Positions 13,457 through 56,557 of a stretch of DNA of 64,000 bases are shown piece by piece. Made by a program: the position numbers and the translations under genes. Source of the DNA: Solirubrobacteraceae bacterium (GTDB taxonomy: Bacteria > Actinomycetota > Thermoleophilia > Solirubrobacterales > Solirubrobacteraceae). Positions within the stretch are counted from its first letter, which is position 1; each line of letters starts with the position of its first letter. A model generated the notes under the pieces. It had not been told where the DNA came from. It searched no databases and saw only the letters and a list, made by a program, of their open reading frames with translations. Location of the stretch: NCBI GenBank assembly GCA_024711025.1, contig JANJTP010000004.1, positions 1-64,000 of the forward strand, written 5' to 3'.

Positions 13457-16003
13457 TCAGCGAGGCCGCTTCAGACGGAACGTGTGGTGCGAGGGCGTGT
13501 AGCGCTCGTCGCCGGGGTAGGTCAGCACGAGGGTCGCACGCGTGAAGCTGCTCGCGGCTCGCGTCAGCACGATGCTCGCGCGCCAAGTGCCCGTTCGCGA
13601 GGGCGAGAGGCGCAGCGAGCGCACGACCCGCAGGCGCCGTGGGCCGGTAAGGGTGATCACGAGCCTCGGTCGGTGGCTCGCGCCGGCGCTGACCATGCCG
13701 CTCAGGTAGGCGCGCTCGGAGGGGACGCGTGTCCTGCGGCCGGTCTTTGGGTTGCGTCGGATGCTCGTCGTCGCCCTCACGGTCAGGCGCGGCCGTGAGG
13801 CATCGAGCAGCACGCGCTCCGGCGGCGCGGGAGGCCGTTGCTTCGCGATCGACACGGCAGGGCTGGTCGTCCAAATGCCCCACTGACCATGTGCGTCGCG
13901 CGCACGCACGCGGAAGCGGTAGGCGCGGCCGGGCTCGCCGCTGACGACGGCGGCGGTCTGTTGCGTGTCCGTCAGCCAGTCGGCCCAGGGGCCGCCGTCG
14001 GTCTGGCGCTCCAGTCGGTAGGCGCTGACCCCGGACGCGTCGTGTGCCGACCAGCTGACCGCAACGGTGGCGCCACCGGTAACGCCGAGCGCGATCTGGC
14101 TGACCGGGCCACTGAGGTCGGCCATCACGGTGGTCGAGGCCGACGAGTGGACCGGCTCACCGCAGCCGCTCGTCCGCGCCGCAATGCGGACGGGTTGTGA
14201 GCCCTCGCCGGTGGCGCGCACGGTCCAGCTGAAGGTGCGCTCCGAACCCGCTTCGAAGGTCGGAGAGCCTTGCGTGGGCGACCCGGCAACCAGCTCGAGA
14301 CCAGGGGGGAGGTCGAGATCGACGCTCAAGCCGCCCGCACCGTCGAGGTCTCCGGAGGGGTTGGTGGCCCTGGCGGTGAGGGTCGCTATGCCGGTGGTCG
14401 TCGTGAGCGTGTCGCGGTCGGCACTGAGCTCGATATCCGGGACCGGCGCGGTCAGTTCGACCGTTGGGCGCGTGGACGCGAGCACGAACGGCTCAGTGGA
14501 GAGACCATCGATCGGTGAGTCGGCACGGACGGCGTACACGACGGCGGCAGGACCCACAGCCGAGCGGACCTGCTTGACGTTGTCCGGGCCGTCGTCGGAC
14601 GTCGCGCGGACCTCGCAGGTCGCGGCTGCGCGCTCTCGTAGGCTGAGGGCGCTTATCGGATGCACCACCGTGTCCTTGAAGCGATCGCCTGCGCTTCGCA
14701 CCGGGGTGAGCACCGGCGTGCGGTCGATCCGCTCGTTCCAGACGAGCGTCGCGCGGTCCTGTGACGCAGTCGTCGTCGCGGCGAAGAAGCGCGGTGCACC
14801 CGGGGCAACGGTGGCGCTCCGCAAGTGGGTCCGCTCGTTCCATGCCTGCGTCAGATCGAGCATTCCCCAGCCCCAGTCGGGCTGCCATCCGGTCTGGGTT
14901 CCCATCGGCAGGACGGTGTCGGGCGCATCCGGATCGACGGCTCGCCCCTGTCGTGCGCTGTTGAGCAGCAGCGCACGGATCGCCAGCGGATCGGTGATAC
15001 CCGCTCCGTAGAGCAGCGCCGCCCCGCCGGCGACCTGAGGCGCCGAGTAGGAGGTTCCGGAGCGCTGCCACCAGAAGCCCGACCCGCCGGGGCACCCAGT
15101 GAAGTTCCAGCACGCCGTGTACGCGTCGCCGACGGCGACGAGGTCCGGCTTGCGCCAGTCTTCGGACGTGGGCCCGCGGCTGCTGTAGTACGCCACGTCG
15201 TCGTCGCTCGTGTCCTCGAGCGTGGTCTTAGGGCTCACGGCCCCGACGCAGAGGCCGTTGTGCAGACCGCAGCTCATGGATGAAAGGGCCGGGCCGGAGT
15301 TGCCGGCGGACTGCACATCGAGGATTCCGAAACTGCTTGCGTTCGCAGCGGAATATCCCGACTGATCAGAGCCGCCTGAGCTGTCACTGATAATCCTCGC
15401 CGGAACACTAGCGCCCACAAGCGTGCCGCTGTTGGTCTGCTGCGCCCACCCGAGGGCCCAGAAGTCCGGGACGACCGTGCTGTCCCAGCCGGTCGACGGG
15501 CTGTTGAGCAGCAGTGCGCGCAGGCCGGGTGCGACGCCCTTGAAGTCCGGCTGGAGGTCGTCGGCACCGCCGGGGCGTGAGAGACACGGAAGTCCGTCGG
15601 GACACGTGGCGACGCCGTTTCCTGTGGCCATCCCTGCGGTTCCCGTTGCGTGCTCGCATCTGATCGCGTCCGGAAGGCATCTCTGGTTAACGCCGGTGAA
15701 GCGGAGAACCGTCAACGGCGGCGCGCCGGTCGGTGGGTGTGGCGGCCCGCTGCGTGGTCCCTGAAACGTCGGATGGAGGTCATTGACCTGGTCGGAGAGG
15801 ATCAGGATCGCCGTGGTGCCGGTGTCGCTCTCCCCGGTCCCGCCGGTGTGCCCGTTGGCCCACCACGTCTGCGCACCTACGGCGCGGTATGCACCTTGGC
15901 GTACGTCCGCGACGACCGGTGAGACCCAGGTCGCAGAGACGACCGCGAGCGCGCCGAGTAGCGCGCCCGCGGTCTGCCGAGTCGTCCTCCCGTGCCGGAC
16001 CAT
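13457..16003 (-). CDS. Secreted subtilisin-like (S8) serine peptidase with FN3/Ig-like C-terminus
   Basis: An 848-residue exported protein: signal peptide (about 1-32), S8 catalytic domain to about 350, then Ig/FN3-like beta domains (YRLERQTDGGPWADW to RVRARDAHGQW) and a basic C-terminal domain. Catalytic features are EHATGTAGMA (H118), the oxyanion SAGNSG (N235) and GTSYSAPQVAGG (S318). The Asp region reads ILILSDQVNDLHPTF: the residue aligned with the catalytic Asp is Ser70 with Asp71 beside it, so activity is plausible but not certain. No inhibitor-I9 propeptide is seen. Many cysteines suggest disulfides. Confidence 0.85.
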   Translation of the reverse strand: MVRHGRTTRQTAGALLGALAVVSATWVSPVVADVRQGAYRAVGAQTWWANGHTGGTGESDTGTTAILILSDQVNDLHPTFQGPRSGPPHPPTGAPPLTVLRFTGVNQRCLPDAIRCEHATGTAGMATGNGVATCPDGLPCLSRPGGADDLQPDFKGVAPGLRALLLNSPSTGWDSTVVPDFWALGWAQQTNSGTLVGASVPARIISDSSGGSDQSGYSAANASSFGILDVQSAGNSGPALSSMSCGLHNGLCVGAVSPKTTLEDTSDDDVAYYSSRGPTSEDWRKPDLVAVGDAYTACWNFTGCPGGSGFWWQRSGTSYSAPQVAGGAALLYGAGITDPLAIRALLLNSARQGRAVDPDAPDTVLPMGTQTGWQPDWGWGMLDLTQAWNERTHLRSATVAPGAPRFFAATTTASQDRATLVWNERIDRTPVLTPVRSAGDRFKDTVVHPISALSLRERAAATCEVRATSDDGPDNVKQVRSAVGPAAVVYAVRADSPIDGLSTEPFVLASTRPTVELTAPVPDIELSADRDTLTTTTGIATLTARATNPSGDLDGAGGLSVDLDLPPGLELVAGSPTQGSPTFEAGSERTFSWTVRATGEGSQPVRIAARTSGCGEPVHSSASTTVMADLSGPVSQIALGVTGGATVAVSWSAHDASGVSAYRLERQTDGGPWADWLTDTQQTAAVVSGEPGRAYRFRVRARDAHGQWGIWTTSPAVSIAKQRPPAPPERVLLDASRPRLTVRATTSIRRNPKTGRRTRVPSERAYLSGMVSAGASHRPRLVITLTGPRRLRVVRSLRLSPSRTGTWRASIVLTRAASSFTRATLVLTYPGDERYTPSHHTFRLKRPR

Positions 16004-16081: not shown

Positions 16082-18994
16082 TCATGGGCTTACGTCTACA
16101 TGAATCGTTCGCGTCCAGGCGGTCGCGAACGGGTAGTCGGGGCGCTGTGCGATGCGGGCGCGGAACCGGTATCTCACGGGGCGGAACGTCGACGTGAACC
16201 GGTAGCCGGCCCTCCATCGGCCGCTCGGCTTGACCTTGACGGCCGCGCGGACCGGCACCCACCTGCGCTTGAGCGGGTTGTAGCCGTAGAGGGCCAGTGT
16301 CATGCCGGCGGGCACGTGACCGCTACGCAGCCGCCCGCTGATCGTCAGCTTGCTCCCGTTGCGCAGGCGGCTCGGTGCGTCGATCGTCGAGCGGGCGCGC
16401 AGCCGGGAGGTCAGCGTGTTGCTGACGGCGTCGGCATACATTTCGTCGCGCCCATGCACGATGCGAACCCGGACGCTGGTCGGCGTGTCGACGCTCACGC
16501 TGACGGCGCCGTCGGGGCCGGTCACCGGCTCGGCGATCGTCACCCAGCGCTGCGCAGTCCTCGTCTCCGGCTGTCGCTGCACGAACAACTTGCGGCCCGC
16601 CAGCGGGGCGCCGCTCGAGAGGGTGAGGTGAGCGTGCACGACTCGCGCTCCGCCGGCTGTCAGGACCGTCGCCGGCGCACAGCGCCGCCCCGTTGAGCGG
16701 CGCTTCACCCGGCTGGAGCAGCGCCGGAGCTGCTTGGCGCTGAAAGCGGCCGCGATCGACACCGCCGAGCGCGCCGGCAGCGCGTATGCGCCGATCTGGT
16801 CGCCGGGGCGCTCGCCGTCCCAGCGGCGGTCGAGGACGGCCGTGTTGCCGGCGCAGTCGGTTACCCGGGCACGCACCTGGATCGGCTCGCGGCGGTCCCA
16901 GACGTCGGGCGGCACGTGCGCGACAACCTGCCGGTCCTCGATCGTCGTGTCGAGCGGTGTGTGGCTCGCCCCGCCGTCGGTGCTGATCTCGACGACGGCG
17001 CTCTTGATGCAGGCTTCGCTGACGAAGAACGAGAGCCTGGTCGGGTCGTTCGGGTTGCTCGGCTCGAGCCCGCCCGACGGTGCCGTCGTGTCCTGCGTGA
17101 ACGTCAGCGATCGCTCCTGCGAGCGGTTGCCGGCGACGTCGACCGCGCTGAGGCGGATCGTGTGCTCGCCGTCACCGGGGGCGATCGTCGCCTGCCCGCC
17201 GCGGACCTGCAGGTCGGGCTGCCCGTCGAGCGAGTAGACGATGTGCCCGCCTTCCTCGACCGAGCGGTCAGACGGGGCAGCCTCCATCCCGCTCAATGGG
17301 TCAGTCGCGGTGACGGCCAGCGCCACCCGGCGGTTGACCACCCGACCCTGGCCGGGCGCGCCGGCGATCGCGAGGATCGGCGCGCCGGTGTCGATCCTGA
17401 TCTCCTGGAGCTCGACGTTCTCGTCGGCGGTCGCAAGCCCGGCGCCGGAGACGGCCCGCGTCCTGACGGTGTGAATTCCGTCGGGCCAGGTACGCAGGTC
17501 GACGATCCCCGTCGCCTCGGCGTCGGCACCCGCGGCGACGTCAAGGCCGCTTCCAGGCATCGCCCCGCTGTGGTCGAGCGCATAGCCGGCGATTCCAGAC
17601 TTTGGATCCGGCCAGAGGTTGGCGCGGGGCTTCTGGAGTCTCCACCCCTTGTCGAGCTCCTCAGCCGAGACCCATCCGTTGTACAGGTCCGGCTTGGGCT
17701 TTCCCGGCACCACGTCATCGAACCGCAGCGTGCCCGACCAGTCGGACCACGCCCCCGTATGGACCTTGTCGTGGACGCGCACCCTGGCGCGGTACTCGCC
17801 CGGCCCTGGAACGGTGAAGGTGTTAGAGCCACCGACGCTTCCGGTTGTCGGCTGGGTCTCGCATGCGCCCATGTCCGGAGCCCCAGTGGAGTCCGTGGCG
17901 CAGACCTGCACCTGGCTTGCGGTGTTGGGGGAGCCCGTGCCGGTCGCAGGGTTCGAGTAGGCGATCGTGAAGCCGTTCACGGTGCGCCAGATCGAGGGTG
18001 CGTCGCCCTGCAGGGAGAGGCCGGTCGGAGCAGCGGGCGGGCTGTTGTCGACGTAGAAGTCGCGAGTTGCGCTTACGGTGTTGCCGGCCGTGTCGGTCGC
18101 GGCGACGACCACGCTGTGCCGACCATCGGCGAGGGACGTCGTGTCGTAGCTCTGCTGATACCAGGTGCTCGCCGGGCAGGGTCGTAGCGCGGTGTAGTCG
18201 CAGGTCGATACGCGCTCGCGCAGCTGGGATGCGCCGCCGTCGATGCTCGTCCTGACCGACCGGATCCCGACGTCGTCGCCGACGTCGAAGCCGACGCTCT
18301 GGTTTCCCGCCAACCAGCTGGTGGCGCTGCTGAACCATAGGCCGCCGGCGAGGTTGGACATCGACGGCGGCGTCGCGTTGGTCAGCGTGACCTTCGCGCC
18401 TCGCAGACGCACCGTGTTGCTCGTCGCGAGTGGACAGAACGCGGCTGCGCACACGACACCGGCGTGGAGCTGTCGCTTGCCTGCGGCGTTCGGCATGCTC
18501 AGATAGTCCCCGGCGCTGCTCATGTAGCCCCAGGAGAGATCGCCGAGCGGACCGGTGTGGATCGTCGCGCCTCCTTCGGCCCAGAAGCCGAGCCGCCAGC
18601 CGTCGCCCCGGTTGTCGTCGGTGATGTCGAACTTCGCGTCGAAGCGCGACACGGTCGTATTGGCTATGGCTGCAGCGTCGAGATCGAGCGACCAGGTCCC
18701 GCCCTGGAACGCCGACGCGGAGCTCGAGCCGTGGAGCACGTTCCGGGCGACGAGACCGTCCGCGAAGTCGGCGCACGCCTGGTAGACGTTCGTGTTCGTG
18801 CCCTGAACCCGAGTCCAGGCGTTGTTCACCTCACCGGTGGGCGAGGCGTCGCACGTCACGACGGTGTAAGTGCCTGCTCGGGCTGGTCGCCCGCCTAGCG
18901 GGAGCAGGAGCGCGAGCACGGTCAGCAGCGTGAGCAGTGCGGTGGGTCGCGCCAGGGCTGGGATCGGGAGTCGCACCTTCAACGTGTCCTCCAT
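16082..18994 (-). CDS. Large secreted surface protein with Ig-like repeats
   Basis: 970 residues with an N-terminal signal peptide (hydrophobic LLTLLTVLALLLPLGG, cleavage after ARA near residue 41). The first ~200 residues look like a lectin/jelly-roll-type domain. Several Ig/bacterial-adhesin-type modules follow, marked by recurrent DGRHSVVVAATDTAGNT, DGEHTIRLSAVDVAGNR and VDNSPPAAP. A basic C-terminal region (about 720-970) contains a DAPSRLRNGSKLTISGRLR module. No catalytic motif recognised; an adhesin or wall protein is likely. It lies 78 bases upstream of the subtilase in the same direction. The SD is buried in a hairpin (18999-19020). Confidence 0.75.
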   Translation of the reverse strand: MEDTLKVRLPIPALARPTALLTLLTVLALLLPLGGRPARAGTYTVVTCDASPTGEVNNAWTRVQGTNTNVYQACADFADGLVARNVLHGSSSASAFQGGTWSLDLDAAAIANTTVSRFDAKFDITDDNRGDGWRLGFWAEGGATIHTGPLGDLSWGYMSSAGDYLSMPNAAGKRQLHAGVVCAAAFCPLATSNTVRLRGAKVTLTNATPPSMSNLAGGLWFSSATSWLAGNQSVGFDVGDDVGIRSVRTSIDGGASQLRERVSTCDYTALRPCPASTWYQQSYDTTSLADGRHSVVVAATDTAGNTVSATRDFYVDNSPPAAPTGLSLQGDAPSIWRTVNGFTIAYSNPATGTGSPNTASQVQVCATDSTGAPDMGACETQPTTGSVGGSNTFTVPGPGEYRARVRVHDKVHTGAWSDWSGTLRFDDVVPGKPKPDLYNGWVSAEELDKGWRLQKPRANLWPDPKSGIAGYALDHSGAMPGSGLDVAAGADAEATGIVDLRTWPDGIHTVRTRAVSGAGLATADENVELQEIRIDTGAPILAIAGAPGQGRVVNRRVALAVTATDPLSGMEAAPSDRSVEEGGHIVYSLDGQPDLQVRGGQATIAPGDGEHTIRLSAVDVAGNRSQERSLTFTQDTTAPSGGLEPSNPNDPTRLSFFVSEACIKSAVVEISTDGGASHTPLDTTIEDRQVVAHVPPDVWDRREPIQVRARVTDCAGNTAVLDRRWDGERPGDQIGAYALPARSAVSIAAAFSAKQLRRCSSRVKRRSTGRRCAPATVLTAGGARVVHAHLTLSSGAPLAGRKLFVQRQPETRTAQRWVTIAEPVTGPDGAVSVSVDTPTSVRVRIVHGRDEMYADAVSNTLTSRLRARSTIDAPSRLRNGSKLTISGRLRSGHVPAGMTLALYGYNPLKRRWVPVRAAVKVKPSGRWRAGYRFTSTFRPVRYRFRARIAQRPDYPFATAWTRTIHVDVSP

Positions 18995-18998
18995 GACG

Positions 18999-19020
18999 CC
19001 CCTCCCGAGGCTGGGAGGGG
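18999..19020 (-). promoter_or_regulatory. Shine-Dalgarno-sequestering hairpin
   Basis: Read on the minus strand, CCCCTCCC-AGCCTC-GGGAGGGG forms a perfect 8-bp stem with a 6-nt loop. The 3' arm contains GGAGG with 6 nt to the ATG at 18994, so it is the SD of the large surface-protein gene. A second weaker stem-loop lies upstream around 19038-19065. Translational control (thermometer or ligand) is inference. Confidence 0.6.
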
Positions 19021-19337
19021 ATTCGCTGACGTTCTCCGACTCCTAGGGGGGGAGGTCGGTTATTGCGCCCCCTCGCGCGGCGGCAACGTATGCGCGCCGA
19101 ACGGTCGCGTGCACGACGAACGGACGAAAAGTCGAGGTGAGCGGGTGCGGAACGGACAGACGAACGAGCGCGCGGCGGATGGACGCTCAGAGCCTTCGCG
19201 TCGCGATGGCGACGAGAGCGGGTTGCACACCGAGCATTCAGTCGCTGACCGAATCGCTCGCGCGAATCGGTGCGGTCACTCGCGGGCCGGGTTCCTCCGG
19301 TGTCAGGGGTGGCGGACGACCGCGCTGCGGAGCGCCG
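19021..19337. other. Intergenic stretch without a supported gene
   Basis: Between the surface-protein start and the end of the GAF-EAL gene. Apart from a stem-loop (CCGAC..GTCGG type, 19038-19065) and a -10-like TACGTT on the minus strand near 19086 for the surface-protein gene, I see nothing coding: the reading frames here lack family resemblance. Confidence 0.5.
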
Positions 19338-20729
19338 TCAGCTCACCGGCGAGGCGGGCGTGAGCCCGCTCAGGCCGGCGGCGTGGCCCGTCATCTGGTG
19401 AAGGGCGCTCGCGGACCCGGGGCGGCCGAGGAGATACCCCTGGCCGAACCGGATGCCCAGCTCGCGGACGGTCTGCAGCTCCTCCGGCGTCTGGATGCCC
19501 TCCGCGGTGATCCTGGCTCCGGTCTGAGCGGCGAAGCTAACGAGGGCCGCCGCCAGCGAGCGTCTGACGGGGTCGATGTCGATCCCGTGGGTGAGCTCGC
19601 GATCGAGCTTGATGATGTCGGGAGAGAGCTTGAGGATGTGCGTCAGGCCGGAGTAGCCGGTGCCGGTGTCGTCGATGGCCAGACGCACGCCGCGCCGGCG
19701 TACCTCCGAGAGCATGTGGCTCAGGCGCCCGTAGTCGTCGACCTCGAAGTGCTCGGTGAGCTCGAGCACGATGCGGCCCGGGCCCGCTGCGTCGAGGATC
19801 GCGCCCAGCTCGCCACCGGCGATCGTCGAGGGCCCGACGTTCAGTGCGAGATACGCCTCCTCGGGGATCGCGTCGATCGACTCCACGGCCGTGCGGATCG
19901 CGGCCAGTTCGAGCTCCATGCCCAGCCCGGCGGCGCGGGCCTGCGCGAACCATGCGTCCGGGGCCTGTGTCGGCGGTCCGGAGAACCGTGCGAGGGCCTC
20001 AGCTCCGACGAGGCGGCCGCTGTCAAGCGCGACGATCGGCTGGTAGACGATCGCCGGTCCCGGACCGGCCAGTAGATCCTCGATCTGCTGCCTGGTCTCC
20101 AGGGCCTCGACGGTTCCGGGCTGCAGGACGTTGGCCACGAACTCGCCGATCTCGCAGCGCTCGGGCGCCGGTACGTTCGGTGCGGGCCTCAGGCGGGCGT
20201 CGTGGGCGGCGCACTCGGAGCACTCGGCAGGGTCCGCCAGCAACTCCCTGGTGACGCGCGCGACGTCGGCGGCGGCGGCGACCGTAGCGGTCACGAAGTC
20301 GGCCAGCCGCGTCAGGGTCTCCACGTCGGCGACCTCGAAGGCCCGTGGCCGTGCGGACATCATCTGAAGCACGCCGATCGGCTGCTCACGGCGGCACAGC
20401 GGGACGCAGACGAGCGAGGCGGCCCCGATCCGGTGGCAGGTGGCTCGAGCGATCCGCGGGTCGGTGGTCGCGTCGACGCAGTGCAGCGTCTCACCGGTCT
20501 TGATCGCCAACCCGGAGAGGCTCGCGTCGAGCCCGAGGCGAATGCCGACGTGGCCGGCCATCGTCCCGGCGGCGCAGACGAAGACCAGCTCGTCGCCGTC
20601 GACCAGCGACACCACCGCGCCCTCCGCCGGCCCCACGATGGCGAGCGCCTGGTCGACGACCCGGCGCATCACGATCATCGGATCGACGAAATCCCGGAGC
20701 GCGTGGCGTAGCTCACCTTCTGCGATCAT
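19338..20729 (-). CDS. GAF-EAL protein, probable c-di-GMP phosphodiesterase
   Basis: About 463 residues: an N-terminal GAF sensor domain, a linker with a CSEC pair and further Cys (ERCE), then an EAL domain. The EAL catalytic set appears complete: GAEALARF, LNVGPSTI, VLELTEHF, IDDTGTGYS (canonical DDFGTGYS, F to T), IIKLDR, TAEGIQT and FGQGYLLGRP. It should hydrolyse c-di-GMP to pGpG. No membrane segment, so cytosolic. Start chosen at ATG 20729, preceded by GGTGAGG; an upstream in-frame ATG at 20819 has no SD. Confidence 0.85.
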   Translation of the reverse strand: MIAEGELRHALRDFVDPMIVMRRVVDQALAIVGPAEGAVVSLVDGDELVFVCAAGTMAGHVGIRLGLDASLSGLAIKTGETLHCVDATTDPRIARATCHRIGAASLVCVPLCRREQPIGVLQMMSARPRAFEVADVETLTRLADFVTATVAAAADVARVTRELLADPAECSECAAHDARLRPAPNVPAPERCEIGEFVANVLQPGTVEALETRQQIEDLLAGPGPAIVYQPIVALDSGRLVGAEALARFSGPPTQAPDAWFAQARAAGLGMELELAAIRTAVESIDAIPEEAYLALNVGPSTIAGGELGAILDAAGPGRIVLELTEHFEVDDYGRLSHMLSEVRRRGVRLAIDDTGTGYSGLTHILKLSPDIIKLDRELTHGIDIDPVRRSLAAALVSFAAQTGARITAEGIQTPEELQTVRELGIRFGQGYLLGRPGSASALHQMTGHAAGLSGLTPASPVS

Positions 20730-20853
20730 GACCTCACCGGCGTTGCCGACGAAAGTGCCCACGCGGCCGGGTGAAGGGCCCCGTCGATCACGGTTGGACG
20801 ACCTCGCTCCGTCGATCATCGACGAAAGCGGTATCAGATTCGACTCGAGTCGG

Positions 20854-32103: not shown

Positions 32104-32123
32104 GCCTCCGAGCGCTCGGAGGC
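32104..32123. terminator. 20-bp perfect palindrome between convergent genes
   Basis: GCCTCCGAGC (32104-32113) and GCTCGGAGGC (32114-32123) form an 8-bp stem with a 4-nt loop. It lies between the thioredoxin-TPR and Pol IV genes, which converge, so it may serve both. Confidence 0.55.
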
Positions 32124-55479: not shown

Positions 55480-56406
55480 TCACAGACCAGCCGGATGGCG
55501 TACGACGTAGCCTGCGGTGGAGCGCATCTCACCGTCCCATCGTGAGCCGTCGTCCATCCCCGAGGTGTCGTAGCGCAGGACCCCGCGGGCGGTCCGGATC
55601 GTCATGTACGCGTGGCCGGGGTTCGCATAGACCGTGATCCAGCGCCCCCTGCCCGGCGAGCCCCAGCGCATGAGCTGGCCGGAATCCAGGGGACTGCGCA
55701 ATGCACCGGCGCCCCGCAGGACGTACGAGACCGATCCCGAGCAGTCATAGCCGCTGTCGTCGAACGAGCGATGCCCGCCGCCGTAGCGGTAGGGCTTGCG
55801 GGCGATCCGGTGGGCGGCGGCAATCGCCTCGACGACGGCCTGCGGCACGCCGTCCACCGTCGGCCCCGCCCCGCGTCCGGCACGCCGTCGCGAGGCGTGC
55901 TCGAGCACCGGCCGGCCGGCGCCCCGGCCGAGCGCCCGCCAGGTCGCCGGGCCGACGACTCCGTCCGCGGTGAGCCCGCGTGAGCGCTGGAAGCGTCGCA
56001 CGGCGCGCAGCGTCGCCGGGCCGAACACCCCGTCGGCGCCGAGCCCGAGACGTCGCTGCAGCACCCGCACCGAGCGCTTGATCCGCGCGCTTCCGGCGGC
56101 GCCGCGACGGGTGCGGCCGATCGAGCGGGTCAGCGCGCGCCACGTCGCCGCGCCGACGACGCCGTCGGCCGTCAGACGATGACCTCGCTGGAAGCGCCGC
56201 ACGGCTCTCTTCGTGCCGGCACCGAAGATCCCGTCGACGGGCAGCCGCAGGGTGCGCTGGAGGCACTCGACCGTCCTGCCGCGATCGCCCGGCTCGAGCG
56301 TCGGCAGGGCGTGGGCCGCGGGGGCGGCCCAGAGGGCGAGCAGGAGGACGGCCAGCCAGGCGGCGACCGGCGGCAGGCGGCGGCGGAGGGTCGTTCGGTG
56401 ACTCAT
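55480..56406 (-). CDS. Peptidoglycan-binding NlpC/P60-type endopeptidase
   Basis: 308 residues: signal peptide ([13 protein letters not shown]), two PG_binding_1 domains ([39 protein letters not shown]), and a C-terminal NlpC/P60-like domain with [20 protein letters not shown] (catalytic Cys) and NPGHAYMTI (catalytic His). It probably cuts peptide stems of peptidoglycan. The start is ATG 56406, immediately downstream of a c-di-AMP riboswitch; upstream in-frame codons lie within the aptamer. Confidence 0.88.
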
Positions 56407-56415
56407 CGCGGTGGG

Positions 56416-56557
56416 CGCCTGCGGGGTTAGCTGGCGGGCTCGCGGCACGGCCGCTACGCCGCGGATGCGGCGATTCGCCCCGGCGGCCTGTGGCGGCCGC
56501 ATTGGTTCCCCCGCTCCCCGGCCTCGTGGACCGCGGATTCGGCGTTCGGCGACGCTA
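56416..56557 (-). promoter_or_regulatory. Second ydaO/yuaA-type c-di-AMP riboswitch and its promoter
   Basis: On the minus strand GCCGAATCC, GGGGAACCA, GGGGCGAATC (56472-56481), GTAGCGGC and GAGCCCGCCAGCTAACCCCG then CAGGC (56417-56437) occur in order, matching the ydaO consensus and the first riboswitch near 34.3 kb. A -10-like TAGCGT (56552-56557) would start the RNA close to the aptamer. The aptamer ends about 10 nt before the ATG of the NlpC/P60 gene; the SD-like GCAGGC lies within its 3' strand. The rest of the gap to 56700 shows no gene. Confidence 0.82.

What the first reader, a model, noticed from the sequence alone, without database searches (positions are those of the whole stretch)
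18999..19020. Start-codon-proximal hairpin that buries a perfect Shine-Dalgarno
The SD GGAGG of the 970-residue surface protein is fully paired in an 8-bp GC stem just before the ATG. Many genes in this window appear leaderless, so a strong but hidden SD stands out and suggests on/off translational control of a large exported protein.
Basis: seen in the sequence. Interest (0 to 1): 0.5.

Follow-up and report, generated by a model that had tools for sequence, protein, structure and literature searches.

The report
Hairpin hiding a ribosome-binding site
A real, very stable RNA hairpin would cover the ribosome-binding site of a large exported bacterial protein, but it is hardly conserved, is close to what chance gives in a GC-rich genome, and the protein may be started from a second, uncovered site just downstream, so it is probably not a switch.

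Summary
The hairpin is exactly where stated, on the minus strand: CCCCTCCC-AGCCTC-GGGAGGGG (19020-18999), cgtc, ATG (18994). Its GGAGG is fully paired (hairpin -17.1 kcal/mol). The switch reading is weak. The SD stays paired in models at 50 C, no RNA family matches, and an SD-type perfect stem of 8 bp or more is expected 0.1 times per 365 starts (1 seen), so about once per genome by extrapolation. Of 18 homologous loci examined, 8 carry a -35/-10 promoter ending 6 nt before the start codon (leaderless-type), and only the closest homologue (41% identity) also has its SD in a stem, short and different in sequence. I favour a static block of the AUG with initiation at the UUG, not on/off control. 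The only other CCCTCCC/GGGAGGG hairpin in this genome lies just before the ATG of an ECF sigma factor, which keeps a small chance of a shared regulator.

The parts
18999..19020 (-). 8-bp perfect hairpin CCCCTCCC-AGCCTC-GGGAGGGG, loop 6 nt, -17.1 kcal/mol at 37 C
19001..19005 (-). SD1, GGAGG inside the 3' arm, 6 nt before ATG; complementary to the 16S 3' end ...GGATCACCTCCTTTC of the same genome
18992..18994 (-).
18988..18992 (-). SD2, second GGAGG, outside the hairpin, overlapping the ATG
   Evidence: SD2-to-UUG opening energy 5.0-7.3 kcal/mol at 37 C
18980..18982 (-). in-frame TTG, 5 nt after SD2: candidate true start (966-aa product, MKVRLPIPALARP...); GTG at 18976-18974 is a further candidate
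   Evidence: inference
16082..18994 (-). Exported protein with a signal-peptide-like N-terminus and bacterial Ig-like domains (Big_13, Big_3_2), OmpL47-type domain
   Evidence: signal peptide judged by eye
19036..19059 (-). Second, weaker upstream hairpin CCGACCTCC..GGAGTCGG with one bulge, present only if transcription starts upstream of it
   Evidence: structure of the 19079 transcript
19085..19090 (-). TACGTT, the TAnnnT box upstream of the leader: candidate -10, transcript start near 19078
   Evidence: box type and spacing; inference
19040..19045 (-). TAGGAG, imperfect alternative -10 (transcript start near 19032)
   Evidence: inference

Best explanation
The hairpin is a static structural block of the first AUG, not a switch. 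Transcription probably starts upstream of it (TACGTT box, or TAGGAG), so the stem forms in the mRNA and almost shuts initiation at the AUG at 18994. The protein is most likely translated from the in-frame UUG at 18982 (or the GUG at 18976), served by a second GGAGG at 18992-18988 that lies outside the stem. The hairpin is then an ordinary stable 5'-leader stem. Shown: the stem, both GGAGG copies, the anti-SD, the predicted energies, the poor conservation. Inferred: the transcript start, the use of UUG, and the lack of an opener.
For: SD1 costs 10.4-12.5 kcal/mol to open at 37 C in three transcript models and SD1 through AUG 15.4-16.4, whereas SD2 through UUG costs 5.0-7.3; the median over 365 starts for positions -12..-6 is 4.8. 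For the MS2 coat hairpin, expression falls to 0.03-0.06 at about -10.5 kcal/mol (table in PMC9894550, passages seen); extrapolating that paper's fit to -17 gives about 1e-6 (my arithmetic, different organism and temperature). TTG is 1.9 per 1000 codons inside genes and 3.0 per 1000 in codons 2-11; 3 of 222 internal TTGs have a GGAGG 4-9 nt upstream, so an SD-served TTG within the first five codons is itself rare. Starting at UUG drops Glu2 and Asp3 and leaves a positively charged signal-peptide start, MKVRLP (established knowledge of signal peptides; no predictor run).
Against: UUG is a rare start here: 8 of 365 by a caller that penalised TTG. SD1 has ideal spacing to an AUG. The closest homologue (G016) also has its SD in a stem before its only well-placed AUG, so a hairpin at this place may not be accidental. 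No close relative exists in which codon conservation could show the true start.
Confidence: 0.42

Rival explanations
1. SD1 and the AUG are the real start and the hairpin is a true regulatory or damping element: translation is low until a protein, small RNA, coupling ribosome or mRNA 5' processing opens the stem.
For: SD1 is the most deeply buried of 27 GGAGG-type starts sampled (12.5 kcal/mol; next 11.5, 10.2). The closest homologue, G016, has CACCTCC-GGAAA-GGAGG-ccac-ATG, SD paired P 0.83. The only other CCCTCCC..GGGAGGG hairpin in the genome also ends just before an ATG, that of an ECF sigma factor.
Against: 17 of 18 other homologous loci lack an SD buried in a stem, 8 of them being leaderless-type. 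A 5-bp stem holding GGAGG occurs at 41 of 1199 GGAGG sites anywhere in the sample (3.4%), so the G016 match is not decisive. No opener was found. 5 of 50 GGGAGGG sites are followed by ATG 3-8 nt on, so the second genomic case is not decisive either.
Confidence: 0.25
2. Chance: a GC-rich leader with C and G runs happens to make an 8-bp stem around a weakly used or unused SD; there is no selection on it.
For: 0.1 such stems expected per 365 starts, hence about one per genome (extrapolated); the leader as a whole is no more stable than its shuffles; CCCTCC..GGAGGG before ATG over 151 genomes gives 43 matches against 30 for the reversed control.
Against: Per-leader chance is 0.6% and the stem sits exactly at SD distance from the ATG.
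Confidence: 0.23
3. The inverted repeat acts in DNA, as an operator or other protein-binding site in the promoter region, and the SD overlap is incidental.
For: It is a perfect 22-bp inverted repeat (8+6+8) in the intergenic region.
Against: The only other copy of the CCCTCCC/GGGAGGG core in the 3.1-Mb genome is also at SD distance from an ATG; no TAnnnT promoter box overlaps it, and no intrinsic terminator signal is there.
Confidence: 0.07

Closest known systems
SD-occluding start-site hairpins of the MS2 coat-gene type (de Smit and van Duin 1990, as cited in PMC9894550, passages seen)
   Same: SD lies in a stem just before the start; predicted output depends on stem energy.
   Different: Much more stable (-17 against -8 kcal/mol for MS2 wild type); start codon itself not in the stem; no known opener; a second SD-start pair lies downstream.
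RNA thermometers (ROSE and fourU types; PMC3669281 seen only as a search listing; the rest recalled)
   Same: SD paired in a hairpin next to the start codon.
   Different: Perfect, almost all G-C stem without bulges or U-rich pairing; SD still paired at 50 C.
Leaderless actinobacterial genes (PMC4633059, abstract and passages seen)
   Same: 8 same-genus homologues have a -10 box 6 nt before the start codon, and the genome is rich in such starts.
   Different: The window gene has no such box before its ATG.

Membership tests
SD-sequestering regulatory hairpin | SD paired in a stable stem upstream of the start codon | tested here: met
   P(paired) 1.0 at 37 C, -17.1 kcal/mol
SD-sequestering regulatory hairpin | pairing kept in orthologues, ideally with compensatory changes | tested here: not met
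   of 18 other homologous loci (19 start codons) only L018 (G016) has a strong SD in a stem; leaders cannot be aligned
SD-sequestering regulatory hairpin | an opener or a condition that frees the SD | not testable with these tools
   no Rfam match; with SD1 forced open the fold loses 10-12.5 kcal/mol at 37 C
RNA thermometer | weak or imperfect pairing that melts in the physiological range | tested here: not met
   perfect stem; hairpin -12.4 kcal/mol at 55 C; SD1 opening still 7.0-8.6 kcal/mol at 60 C
Known riboswitch or leader family | covariance-model match at gathering score | tested here: not met
   no match at this leader; weak matches only, E 3.9 and worse
Leaderless gene | -10 box ending about 6-8 nt before the start codon | tested here: not met
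   best candidate CAGCCT at 13 nt, no TAnnnT; 8 homologues do meet it
Intrinsic terminator | GC stem followed by a T run | tested here: not met
   none in 18940-19400

The most novel reading that the evidence does not exclude
This genome uses GC-clamped 5'-leader hairpins with the CCCUCCC/GGGAGGG core to hold two genes shut, a large surface protein and an ECF sigma factor, under one trans-acting opener such as a C-rich small RNA or an RNA-binding protein. In the sigma-factor gene a hairpin stands at the same place in two further homologues with different stem sequences (L068 GCCCTCC-CCCTTC-GGAGGGC; L067 CCGCC-GACC-GGCGG).
Probability: 0.05. Interest if true: 0.6.

Novelty: new member of a known kind. 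Interest (0 to 1): 0.2.

Why it matters
If the hairpin were a switch, it would be a translational control of a large exported protein in Solirubrobacterales, a group on which the one paper search I ran (Solirubrobacter with leaderless) returned a single unrelated paper. If my reading is right, it matters for annotation: the start would be a UUG with its own SD, and a strong SD next to an AUG would be a decoy. Either way the lineage shows leaderless and SD-led versions of one gene family side by side.

Tried and rejected
Rejected: RNA thermometer (stem too stable); known riboswitch or leader (five related loci); intrinsic terminator; dispersed repeat (the 141-bp leader matches only itself in the genome); leaderless start at this ATG. 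Led nowhere: a CTAGGAG motif shared with a few homologous leaders is single-copy here with flanking Cs and is not more frequent than chance; a general excess of CCTCC..GGAGG..ATG in seven genomes exists against the reversed-pattern control (for the own genome 10 against 3) but most own-genome hits are not at gene starts by my calls, and the longer pattern in 151 genomes gives 43 against 30; the reversed control ends in GTA, not ATG, so it is a rough one. A named-genome scan with P0001, L018 and L012 found 3 loci, two of them already held.

Limits: gene starts come from my own codon-usage caller, which ignores SDs and penalises TTG. The 407-kb sample is the window plus 20 stretches; several stretches were chosen because they held pattern hits, so it leans towards hairpins. 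The caller placed the sigma-factor start upstream of its hairpin, so that case is not in the 365-start counts.

Full report
What is there. The gene is on the minus strand (18994-16082, 970 codons from ATG). Reading the minus strand, its leader ends ...TCAGCGAAT-CCCCTCCC-AGCCTC-GGGAGGGG-CGTC-ATG-GAGGACACG-TTG-AAG-GTG. The two arms pair perfectly over 8 bp (19020-19013 with 19006-18999), -17.1 kcal/mol at 37 C, and GGAGG at 19005-19001 is paired with probability 1.0. The 16S rRNA of the same genome ends ...GGATCACCTCCTTTC, so GGAGG is a true SD core. The observation and its coordinates are correct.

The gene and its surroundings. The protein has a signal-peptide-like N-terminus (by eye) and bacterial Ig-like domains (Big_13, Big_3_2) and an OmpL47-type domain. 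Upstream on the same strand lies a GAF-EAL protein, a likely c-di-GMP phosphodiesterase, and downstream a subtilase-family protein.

How unusual is the stem? In a 407-kb sample of the same genome I called 369 genes by codon usage; 365 have 60 nt upstream. A perfect stem of 8 bp or more with an SD core in its 3' arm near the start is seen at 1 of 365 and expected at 0.1 from dinucleotide shuffles; of 6 bp or more, 4 against 1.45; of 4 bp or more, 7 against 7.15. Shuffling this leader alone gives such an 8-bp stem in 116 of 20,000. Among 27 starts with a GGAGG it is the hardest to open, 12.5 kcal/mol (next 11.5, 10.2, 10.0, 9.9); among all 365 it ranks 8th, although some of those are leaderless-type starts whose upstream DNA may not be transcribed. 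It is the tail of a continuum. The 121-nt leader is not more stable than its shuffles (z -0.24).

Leaderless background. TAnnnT occurs in -5..-17 of 69 of 365 starts against 5.2 in shuffles, and GGAGG in the SD region of 26 against 7.0; the boxes peak 6-8 nt before the start codon. This fits leaderless mRNAs, common in mycobacteria (nearly one-quarter of transcripts; PMC4633059, abstract and passages).

Homologues. All 17 genomes held for the genus have a match to this protein, the other 16 at 34-41% identity over their best stretch; the family-wide search with the first 433 residues matched 16 of 146 genomes at E 1e-30 or better. I examined the leaders of 19 loci, 20 start codons, window gene included. 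Loci dropped because the match begins too near a contig end or the start could not be placed: L003, L019, L020, L022, L023, L024, L025, L027, L028, L030, L031 (some of these were printed without a usable start). Eight same-genus loci (L004-L011) have TTGACA, 18 nt, TAnnnT, ending 6 nt before the start codon: a leaderless-type architecture and no hairpin. Only L018 (G016, the closest by identity, 41%) has a strong SD in a stem: CACCTCC-GGAAA-GGAGG-ccac-ATG, SD paired P 0.83. Its loop, stem and spacing differ and the leaders cannot be aligned, so common descent is not shown; by chance 41 of 1199 GGAGG sites in the sample lie in a 5-bp or longer perfect stem. Six further homologous loci printed and one show no SD buried in a comparable GC stem by my reading of the listed folds; this was not scored.

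The second start. GGAGG recurs at 18992-18988, overlapping the ATG and outside the stem, 5 nt before an in-frame TTG (18982). TTG makes up 1.8% of leucine codons (1.9 per 1000 codons), 3.0 per 1000 in codons 2-11, and 3 of 222 internal TTGs have a GGAGG 4-9 nt upstream. Opening SD2 through UUG costs 5.0-7.3 kcal/mol at 37 C in three transcript models, SD1 10.4-12.5, SD1 through AUG 15.4-16.4; the median over 365 starts (positions -12..-6) is 4.8. Published data for the MS2 coat hairpin show expression at a few per cent when the stem reaches about -10.5 kcal/mol (PMC9894550, passages). A stem of -17 should therefore almost silence the AUG unless something opens it. Starting at UUG also removes two acidic residues from the signal peptide's start. 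I therefore prefer UUG (or GUG 18976) as the working start; this remains inference.

Could it be a switch? With SD1 forced open the best alternative folds lose 10-12.5 kcal/mol at 37 C and 7.0-8.6 at 60 C, so neither heat nor a simple refolding frees it. No Rfam family matches. Control by an unknown opener is not excluded.

A second case in the genome. CCCTCCC, 3-10 nt, GGGAGGG occurs at two places in the 3.1-Mb genome and at none in seven other genomes searched with it. The second place, G000:C14:77338-77358, is GATCCCTCCCCCGTCGGGGGAGGGATC, then ctc, then the ATG of an ECF-type sigma factor (sigma70-ECF, E 5.5e-14; sequence). The homologue in G054 (75% identity) has GCCCTCC-CCCTTC-GGAGGGC before its ATG and that in G019 (77%) CCGCC-GACC-GGCGG; the more distant homologues listed show no such stem by my reading. 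As 5 of 50 GGGAGGG sites in the sample are followed by ATG 3-8 nt on, two of two is suggestive, not conclusive. Across 151 genomes of the order CCCTCC..GGAGGG..ATG occurs 43 times against 30 for the reversed pattern, so such hairpins are not a general device.

Verdict. A real hairpin, correctly seen; a known kind of structure; weakly conserved; on/off control not demonstrated; a simpler route to translation exists.

Noticed in passing
G000:C14:77335-77361 (L056, L066): A 12-bp SD-containing hairpin directly before the conserved ATG of an ECF sigma factor gene; homologues in G054 and G019 have different stems at the same place. The frame is open upstream through the hairpin, so the start is not certain.
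   Followed up: partly
L004-L011, start regions: Eight same-genus homologues of the surface protein share a near-consensus promoter, TTGACA-18-TAnnnT, ending 6 nt before the start codon, unlike most promoters in this GC-rich genome, which lack a visible -35.
   Followed up: partly
window 56400-56554 (-): c-di-AMP riboswitch (RF00379, 45.2 bits) just upstream of an uncharacterised minus-strand gene called at 55480-56406.
   Followed up: no
window 19338-20819 (-): GAF-EAL protein, a likely c-di-GMP phosphodiesterase, next to the surface protein and a subtilase (13457-16003): possibly c-di-GMP-linked surface genes.
   Followed up: no
window 32104-32123: GCCTCCGAGCGCTCGGAGGC, an 8-bp inverted repeat between two convergent gene ends, possibly a bidirectional terminator stem.
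   Followed up: no
L157 near 1429-1471, L158 near 1471, L160 near 744-786: Three distant homologues share a leader ending GGAGTTCAC(G/A)CC before an upstream start candidate, perhaps a conserved leader peptide or the end of an upstream gene.
   Followed up: no
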